Shown: positions 36,320 to 37,426 of the stretch, piece after piece
How positions within the stretch are numbered: position 1 is the first letter of the stretch
Layout of the letters: each line of letters begins with the position of its first letter
DNA from: Candidatus Zambryskiibacteriota bacterium
GTDB taxonomy: Bacteria > Patescibacteriota > Minisyncoccia > Phycocordibacterales > Zambryskibacteraceae
Assembly (NCBI GenBank): GCA_016180955.1
Contig: JACPAD010000006.1
Span: 1 to 50,227 of the forward strand
DNA length: 50,227 nucleotides
Reading direction: 5' to 3'
The notes under the pieces: generated by a model
What the model saw: the letters and a program-made list of their open reading frames with translations, nothing else
The model's database searches: none
What the model was told of the DNA's origin: nothing
Position numbers and translations under genes: made by a program

Positions 36320-36574
36320 TTAACCCAAACTATTTCTAAGCATAATCCTTAGAGCTTTTCTGCCTGGACTTGTTTTGAAGTATTCTTCCCGTCTTTTAGC
36401 ATCTACTTTATCTTTATATGCCTCATAAAATACCAATTCCCATGGTGCATATGGTTTTGTTGAGGAAACTAATTTTTTATTATGCCTTTCAAATCGACTT
36501 TTCAAATCTGTTGAATAACCGACATAGATTTGATCAGTTTTATTTTTGCTTTTTAAAATGTAAACATAGAACAT
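36320..36574 (-). CDS. GIY-YIG nuclease domain protein (UPF0213-like)
   Basis: MFYVYILKSKNKTDQIYVGYSTDLKSRFERHN...KRREEYFKTSPGRK. Confidence 0.9.
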   Translation of the reverse strand: MFYVYILKSKNKTDQIYVGYSTDLKSRFERHNKKLVSSTKPYAPWELVFYEAYKDKVDAKRREEYFKTSPGRKALRIMLRNSLG

Positions 36575-36646
36575 ATTCAGGGCGGTCAGAAGTAGATTAT
36601 AAATCACTTCTGACCAGCCCCGAAGTGAACTTGTTCTACTTCGGGG

Positions 36647-36823
36647 CGCGAGTGACGGGACTTGAACCCGCAGCCTCGTCCGTGCATGTTATCCACTATT
36701 TTCATAATGGCATGGACTATATCTTCGCCATAAGTTGATACTTGAGAGTTTCAAACCATCTTTCGAATAGTAAGCTGCAGTATCCTACAGGGACGCGCTC
36801 TAACCAAATTGAGCTACACCCGC
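36647..36823 (-). tRNA. tRNA-Asp(GTC) interrupted in the anticodon loop by 102 nt (36685..36786)
   Basis: Exon 1 36787..36823 GCGGGTGTAGCTCAATTTGGTTAGAGCGCGTCCCTGT; exon 2 36647..36684 CACGGACGAGGCTGCGGGTTCAAGTCCCGTCACTCGCG; joined they form a complete 75-nt cloverleaf. Confidence 0.85.
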
Positions 36824-37333
36824 ATTGCTTATTCCGTAAAGCGTTTTTATTGCCTTATGGAAAAGTCTATGCTTGCGATTTAAATATAAACCGCGGCAGT
36901 TATTATGATACATTAGATTATATAAAGCAACACTATCTCGGTGGCTAAAAACTAACTCATACCCCCTTTCTTTTTTAACAATAAAACCACCAACAAAATT
37001 CAGACTAGAGTGTAAAGATTCTAAAAATTTGCGAGAACCACACGTGAATCGTGTTGTAAAAATCCATCTATTTTTATTCCTATCTTTAGCAAAATGCTGT
37101 TTAAAATAAATGCAACCGTCCCCGTCAAAATATCCCCTAACAAAATCGCCCAGCAAATTATTCGGTATTTTAGGAAAATCTACAATCAGACTTTTGTTGG
37201 GCGTAAATCCCAGTTTGATTAAATCTGCGAACATCTCCTTGCTACCAATCTGTAATCTATACCCCATTTTCCATTTAGCGTTTCTTTTATCTCTGGTGGA
37301 TATTTTATGATTTGACTTAAAGAGTTTCTTCAC
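36800..37333 (-). CDS. LAGLIDADG-family homing endonuclease, possibly N-terminally truncated; 3' end overlaps tRNA-Asp exon 1
   Basis: IPNNLLGDFVRGYFDGDGCIYFKQHF; RGYELVFSHRDSVALYNLMYHN. Confidence 0.8.
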   Translation of the reverse strand: MKKLFKSNHKISTRDKRNAKWKMGYRLQIGSKEMFADLIKLGFTPNKSLIVDFPKIPNNLLGDFVRGYFDGDGCIYFKQHFAKDRNKNRWIFTTRFTCGSRKFLESLHSSLNFVGGFIVKKERGYELVFSHRDSVALYNLMYHNNCRGLYLNRKHRLFHKAIKTLYGISNAGVAQFG

Positions 37334-37352
37334 TAAGAGAGGAGCGGATTGG

Positions 37353-37426
37353 TGTCGGCGGGAGGGATCGAACCTCCGACCTTGGGCTTATGAGTCCCAC
37401 GCTCTAACCAACTGAGCTACGCCGAC
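37353..37426 (-). tRNA. tRNA with CAT anticodon (elongator Met or Ile2), CCA encoded
   Basis: GTCGGCGTAGCTCAGTTGGTTAGAGCGTGGGACTCATAAGCCCAAGGTCGGAGGTTCGATCCCTCCCGCCGACA-CCA. Confidence 0.92.

What the first reader, a model, noticed from the sequence alone, without database searches (positions are those of the whole stretch)
36647..36823. tRNA-Asp(GTC) split in its anticodon by a 102-nt group-I-like mini-intron
Exons of 37 and 38 nt join into a complete tRNA-Asp (GTC, G73 discriminator). The insert lies between anticodon positions 35 and 36, follows a U and ends in G, as in group I introns. Exon CUGU can pair with intron GCAG to give a U.G pair at the 5' splice site. The insert holds AAGATATAGTCC (typical group I P7 3' strand), then CCATTAT-GAAA-ATAGTGG (P9-like, GNRA loop) just before the terminal G. 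At 102 nt there is no room for a normal P4-P6/P3-P8 core and I see no clear P7 5' partner. It is either a degraded or extremely reduced group I intron, or one needing trans help.
Basis: partly seen in the sequence, partly recalled or inferred. Interest (0 to 1): 0.82.

Follow-up and report, generated by a model that had tools for sequence, protein, structure and literature searches.

The report
Core-deleted intron in a tRNA-Asp gene
A small bacterium's only detected aspartate tRNA gene is interrupted by a 102-base leftover of an ordinary self-splicing (group I) intron whose catalytic core has been deleted, so as written it cannot splice itself; this is most likely a broken or mis-assembled copy rather than a new kind of mini-intron.

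Summary
On the minus strand, 36823..36647 is a tRNA-Asp(GTC) with a 102-nt insert (36786..36685) between anticodon positions 35 and 36. The insert is not a naturally minimal ribozyme. Relatives carry a full 203-236-nt group I intron at the same site of the same gene in the same neighbourhood; three of five tested pass Rfam RF00028 and their core shows covariation. Ours keeps P1, P2, the P7 3' strand, P9 and the terminal G, and has lost about 105 nt: part of P3, P4-P6, the P7 5' strand and part of P8. Nothing left can pair as P7. The deletion is unique: 1 of 397 genomes of the order, only chance matches in 84,980 species. No other group I core, tRNA-splicing endonuclease or RtcB was found in the assembled genome. 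The exons are intact, so the deletion is recent or an assembly or strain artefact; reads must decide. In passing: a free-standing LAGLIDADG endonuclease family abuts tRNA-Asp across the order, with or without the intron, often using the tRNA's U8-A9-G10 as stop codon. Our copy is truncated.

The parts
36647..36823 (-). tRNA-Asp(GTC) gene, interrupted; only tRNA-Asp found in the assembled genome
   Evidence: Rfam tRNA 49.6 bits; ARAGORN tRNA-Asp i(39,102); own tRNA list
36787..36823 (-). 5' exon, 37 nt, ends CUGU at anticodon position 35
36685..36786 (-). 102-nt group I intron remnant, inserted between tRNA positions 35 and 36
   Evidence: alignment to 203-236-nt introns at the same site
36647..36684 (-). 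3' exon, 38 nt, discriminator G73; no encoded CCA (CCC follows)
36775..36790 (-). P1: exon CUGU (36790-36787) with internal guide GCAG (36778-36775), U.G at the 5' splice site
   Evidence: conserved GCAGC in relatives
36755..36771 (-). P2 hairpin with GAAA loop
   Evidence: sequence; aligned with P2 of relatives
36744..36754 (-). TTGAAACTCTC: J2/3 and start of the P3 5' strand; its P3 3' partner is deleted
36743..36744 (-). deletion junction (uncertain by a few nt): about 105 nt lost, comprising the rest of P3, P4, P5, P6, P7 5' strand, P3 3' strand and P8 5' strand
   Evidence: alignments; absent from 396 other genomes of the order
36732..36743 (-). AAGTATCAACTT: probable distal part of P8
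   Evidence: aligned with P8 of relatives; inference
36714..36725 (-). AAGATATAGTCC: J8/7 and P7 3' strand, no 5' partner left
   Evidence: invariant in relatives; no pairing 5-mer in the insert
36693..36710 (-). P9 hairpin CCATTAT-GAAA-ATAGTGG
   Evidence: alignment
36685..36685 (-). terminal G of the intron
36803..37339 (-). LAGLIDADG homing endonuclease remnant: C-terminal about 170 aa, first LAGLIDADG motif lost; reading frame runs into the tRNA 5' exon
   Evidence: Pfam; 67% identity to residues 53-223 of the 228-aa relative; alignment
37350..37426 (-). tRNA-Met just upstream; in intronless relatives it lies 1-2 nt from tRNA-Asp

Best explanation
The insert is a dead deletion derivative of the group I intron that many relatives carry in the anticodon loop of tRNA-Asp. 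One internal deletion of about 105 nt removed the catalytic core (part of P3, P4-P6, P7 5' strand, part of P8) and left both splice-site ends (P1, P2, P7 3' strand, P9, terminal G). As written, the transcript can fold a tRNA body and the P1 duplex but has no guanosine-binding site and cannot splice itself (inferred from anatomy, not tested). The tRNA appears single-copy in relatives and should be essential, and its exons are intact. So the deletion is either very recent or present only in the assembled sequence or part of the population, and living cells most likely have a functional tRNA-Asp allele that this assembly does not show (inferred). Next to it lies a truncated LAGLIDADG endonuclease, which in relatives forms a flanking partner of the intron, so both parts of a former mobile unit are broken here.
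For: Full-length 203-236-nt introns at the same site and in the same neighbourhood (gatA, orf, tRNA-Met, tRNA-Met, tRNA-Asp) in relatives. Relatives score up to 53 bits for RF00028 (gathering 50) against 25.8 for ours. The core structure of relatives shows 15 pairs changed on both sides, above all 500 shuffles. Retained parts of ours are 83-89% identical to relatives, so outside the gap the intron has not decayed. No pairing partner for P7. The short form occurs in 1 of 397 genomes of the order and 1 of 31 of the family; the seven hits in 84,980 species genomes and three in IMG/VR lack the tRNA context and are chance or other introns. No detached core in the genome by RF00028 or a custom model.
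Against: The tRNA-Asp exons are intact, and both 39-nt blocks matched in the intronless same-genus relative G015 are 100% identical, which would be odd for a long-dead gene. No other tRNA-Asp is found in the assembly, so a dead gene should be lethal unless a copy lies in the missing part (85% complete; tRNA-Phe is also missing). No splicing assay or reads are available.
Confidence: 0.86

Rival explanations
1. Assembly or strain artefact: the organism carries a full-length intron (or none), and the 105-nt gap comes from mis-assembly, gap closing, a chimera or a minority strain. This is a statement about where the deletion comes from and is compatible with the best explanation, so the confidences overlap.
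For: The gene should be essential and has intact exons; the form is unique. The lost stretch contains the segments most conserved between species, such as GTAGAGACTAGATAC, which can tangle metagenome assembly graphs. Intron-bearing loci in several relatives lie near contig ends (L103, L111, L117).
Against: The two sides of the junction share no obvious repeat, so a pure graph error needs reads or gap filling that span it. The contig is otherwise syntenic with relatives.
Confidence: 0.42
2. Trans help: the remnant still splices because another RNA (a complete group I core) or a protein supplies the missing part.
For: Both ends needed for P1 and the 3' splice site are kept; exons are intact; no other tRNA-Asp is seen.
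Against: No group I core elsewhere in the 488 kb by RF00028 or by the custom model (best match is this remnant itself). No tRNA-splicing endonuclease (PF01974) or RtcB (PF01139). No relative has a similar arrangement.
Confidence: 0.06
3. A naturally minimal ribozyme that splices with 102 nt.
For: All end motifs are present.
Against: No P7 can form, and 54 of the 76 columns invariant among seven relatives fall in or at the edge of the gap (counted by hand); it matches only as a gapped derivative of a larger intron.
Confidence: 0.02
4. Not a group I intron at all, but a chance insertion or an archaeal-type (bulge-helix-bulge) tRNA intron.
For: Position is in the anticodon loop.
Against: Homology to bona fide group I introns at the same position; no archaeal-type endonuclease.
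Confidence: 0.01

Closest known systems
Full-length group I introns in tRNA-Asp(GTC) of the same order (e.g. L035/G021, L032/G005, L033/G018, L037/G050)
   Same: Same tRNA, same site (35/36), same P1, P2, P7 3' strand, P9 and terminal G, same neighbourhood
   Different: They are 203-236 nt with complete P3-P8; ours is 102 nt without the core
Bacterial tRNA group I introns in general: cyanobacterial tRNA-Leu(UAA), tRNA-fMet with I-SspI, tRNA-Ile2 of Acidovorax and Burkholderia (PMC3984707; PMC8450103); group I introns in CPR tRNAs noted in PMC8172020
   Same: Self-splicing intron inserted in a tRNA gene, typically in the anticodon loop
   Different: Ours lacks the catalytic core; the endonuclease gene is outside, not inside, the intron
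Collaborative (trans) homing of phage introns with a free-standing endonuclease (F-CphI with psbA; T4-like phages; reviewed in PMC3984707)
   Different: Bacterial tRNA gene instead of phage protein genes; a LAGLIDADG enzyme; cleavage site unknown; in our window both endonuclease and intron are truncated

Membership tests
tRNA (RF00005), tRNA-Asp | Complete cloverleaf with GUC anticodon after removal of the insert | tested here: met
   Rfam 49.6 bits, gathering 29; ARAGORN; fold of joined exons
Group I intron (RF00028) | U before 5' splice site, U.G pair in P1, terminal G | tested here: met
Group I intron (RF00028) | Score above the curated Rfam threshold (50 bits) | tested here: not met
   25.8 bits, and that alignment reaches into unrelated upstream sequence
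Group I intron (RF00028) | P3-P8 and P4-P6 domains with complete P7 (guanosine-binding site) | tested here: not met
   Deleted; no P7 5' partner
Group I intron (RF00028) | Common descent with bona fide group I introns at the same site | tested here: met
   83-89% identity of retained parts with full-length relatives
Group I intron (RF00028) | Guanosine-initiated self-splicing | not testable with these tools
   No RNA data or assay
LAGLIDADG homing endonuclease (neighbouring ORF) | Two LAGLIDADG motifs in the single-chain form | tested here: not met
   Only the second motif (GYFDGDG) remains; relatives have GFFAADG and GYFDGDG
Collaborative homing pair (in relatives) | Free-standing endonuclease gene beside a gene that holds an ORF-less intron | tested here: met
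   20 of 43 strong intron matches have the endonuclease directly 5'
Collaborative homing pair (in relatives) | Endonuclease cuts the intron-insertion site of intronless alleles | not testable with these tools
   Needs biochemistry

The most novel reading that the evidence does not exclude
The insert is real and fixed, and the only tRNA-Asp of this organism is matured from a coreless group I remnant by a catalytic core or protein supplied in trans, which would be a natural trans-complemented group I splicing system in a bacterium.
Probability: 0.05. Interest if true: 0.85.

Novelty: new member of a known kind. Interest (0 to 1): 0.36.

Why it matters
By itself it is a broken copy of a widespread tRNA-Asp group I intron and a warning that an intron-interrupted, apparently essential tRNA in a metagenome-type assembly needs read support. 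It points to something more useful: in this order an ORF-less intron and a free-standing LAGLIDADG endonuclease meet at one tRNA gene. Intron only, endonuclease only, both, neither and broken versions all occur in related genomes. That makes the steps by which endonucleases and introns come together and decay directly testable in a cellular gene.

Tried and rejected
(1) Minimal ribozyme: rejected, no P7 and a clear larger parent. (2) Core transposed elsewhere in the genome (trans-splicing): searched with RF00028 and a custom covariance model; only this remnant and two sub-threshold RF00028 matches (E 0.37 and 1.9) appear. (3) The 239-nt full-length RF00028 match at 36693-36931: spurious 5' part, it uses endonuclease-coding and tRNA sequence as filler. 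(4) Second tRNA-Asp in the genome: none among 38 tRNAs; second hits in relatives were tRNA-Ile(GAT) where checked. (5) Same deletion elsewhere: patterns in 84,980 species, 397 genomes of the order, 31 of the family and IMG/VR found only chance or unrelated introns. (6) Protein-spliced tRNA intron: no PF01974 or RtcB in the genome. (7) Laying the whole genome in the Python box was not possible. (8) Literature: search terms on CPR tRNA introns gave only passing mentions. (9) One fold call failed on length and was replaced.

Full report
What was claimed and what is there. The finding lies on the minus strand. Exon 1 (36823..36787, 37 nt), insert (36786..36685, 102 nt) and exon 2 (36684..36647, 38 nt) are exactly as described. 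Rfam's tRNA model matches the whole span with 49.6 bits. ARAGORN with introns allowed reads tRNA-Asp(GTC) with a 102-nt intron, although the default run misses it. The joined exons fold as a cloverleaf with all seven acceptor pairs and discriminator G. Exon CUGU and intron GCAG pair with a U.G at the splice site; the insert ends in G; AAGATATAGTCC and a GAAA-capped P9 hairpin are present. No stretch of the insert can serve as the 5' strand of P7.

Relatives show the parent. A search of 61 related genomes found the same tRNA gene with larger introns. Seven clearly related introns (loci L032-L038) are 203, 205, 227, 213, 211, 220 and 236 nt long and align end to end with ours except for one large gap. 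Ours matches ...GCAGC-P2-TTGAAACTCTC and then resumes at AAGTATCAACTT-ATGGCG-AAGATATAGTCC-P9-G. The gap takes the end of the P3 5' strand, P4, P5, P6, the P7 5' strand, the P3 3' strand and the P8 5' strand, about 105 nt. The pairwise alignments scatter a few bases of P8 inside the gap, so the borders are uncertain by a few nt. The core of the seven relatives supports a standard group I fold: 94% of cells paired, 15 pairs with changes on both sides, above all 500 shuffles. Three of five relatives pass Rfam's group I threshold of 50 bits; ours scores 25.8 bits, with an alignment that borrows upstream coding sequence.

The short form is unique. A pattern for P2, J2/3 and P7 3' strand at short distance gave seven hits in 84,980 species genomes, none in a tRNA of this kind (the window's own record may be left out there). 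It gave one hit in 31 family genomes and one in 397 genomes of the order, both being this window. The normal spacing occurs in 22 of the 397, and the custom core model matches 133 of 397, with about 43 strong matches. Three IMG/VR hits are not of this kind: two are the same phage sequence, which looks like an ordinary group I intron, and one is a chance match.

Can it work? Inferred, not tested: without P7 and P4-P6 there is no guanosine site and no self-splicing. I looked for help in trans. The assembled genome (488 kb, 7 contigs, 85% complete) has no other group I core by RF00028 or by the custom model, whose only match is this remnant with 17.9 bits. It has no archaeal-type tRNA endonuclease and no RtcB. 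It has 38 tRNAs against 43 in the near-complete same-genus genome G014. This is its only tRNA-Asp, and tRNA-Phe is missing altogether, so the assembly is incomplete. No relative inspected showed a second tRNA-Asp; second matches that were checked were tRNA-Ile.

How old is the deletion? The retained intron parts are 83-89% identical to relatives. P1, P2 and P9 are intact, and the two 39-nt exon blocks matched in G015 are 100% identical. A long-dead gene should have drifted. So the deletion is recent, or exists only in part of the population, or is an assembly error. I put the last two together at about 0.42. Reads decide.

The surroundings. Immediately upstream is an open frame (36803-37339) with one LAGLIDADG motif. 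It aligns with residues 53 onward of a 228-aa endonuclease in G021 that has two motifs, so ours has lost the N-terminal part. In G021, G050 and many others the intact endonuclease gene lies between tRNA-Met and tRNA-Asp and ends at or inside the tRNA. In same-genus relatives G014 and G015 without it, the two tRNAs are 1-2 nt apart and tRNA-Asp has no intron. Across the order, 20 of 43 strong intron matches have the endonuclease directly 5' on the same strand. Of 44 further endonuclease loci inspected, 34 abut an intronless tRNA-Asp, 2 an intron-bearing tRNA-Asp, 6 tRNA-Cys, and 2 could not be resolved. The association of endonuclease and intron is strong by a simple count (Fisher p about 3e-9) but the table is approximate and not corrected for relatedness. 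In many loci the endonuclease stop codon is the tRNA's own U8-A9-G10. This is the layout called collaborative homing in phages (PMC3984707), here in a bacterial tRNA gene. Where the enzyme cuts is unknown.

Verdict. It is a core-deleted derivative, not a new minimal intron. By membership it fails two defining features of an active group I intron (complete core, Rfam threshold) while meeting common descent.

Noticed in passing
L122-L124, L128, L160-L193; window 36803-37339 as truncated copy: A LAGLIDADG endonuclease family (about 229 aa, two motifs) sits directly 5' of tRNA-Asp across the order, with or without an intron in the tRNA; in many loci its stop codon is the tRNA's U8-A9-G10.
   Followed up: partly
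L194-L199: A related subfamily of the same endonuclease lies directly 5' of tRNA-Cys(GCA) and runs into that tRNA.
   Followed up: no
L083:3657-3937: An intronless tRNA-Asp preceded by a broken endonuclease remnant (in-frame stop, N-terminal part missing): either the intron was lost or the endonuclease came alone.
   Followed up: no
L081:2677-2992, L091:65-383, L122:525-809: Introns of 213-247 nt in tRNA-Leu(CAA) close to the tRNA-Asp locus, probably another group I intron family.
   Followed up: no
L188, last 100 bases (contig end of G120:C21): A tandemly repeated fragment resembling a tRNA-Asp 5' end follows the endonuclease gene at a contig end, possibly an assembly artefact at this locus.
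   Followed up: no
window 36320-36607 (-): A small GIY-YIG domain protein directly downstream of the tRNA; a homologue lies downstream of the intron-bearing tRNA-Asp in G021 too.
   Followed up: no
whole genome G000: No tRNA-Phe was found among 38 tRNAs, so either the assembly is incomplete or that gene is interrupted beyond detection.
   Followed up: no
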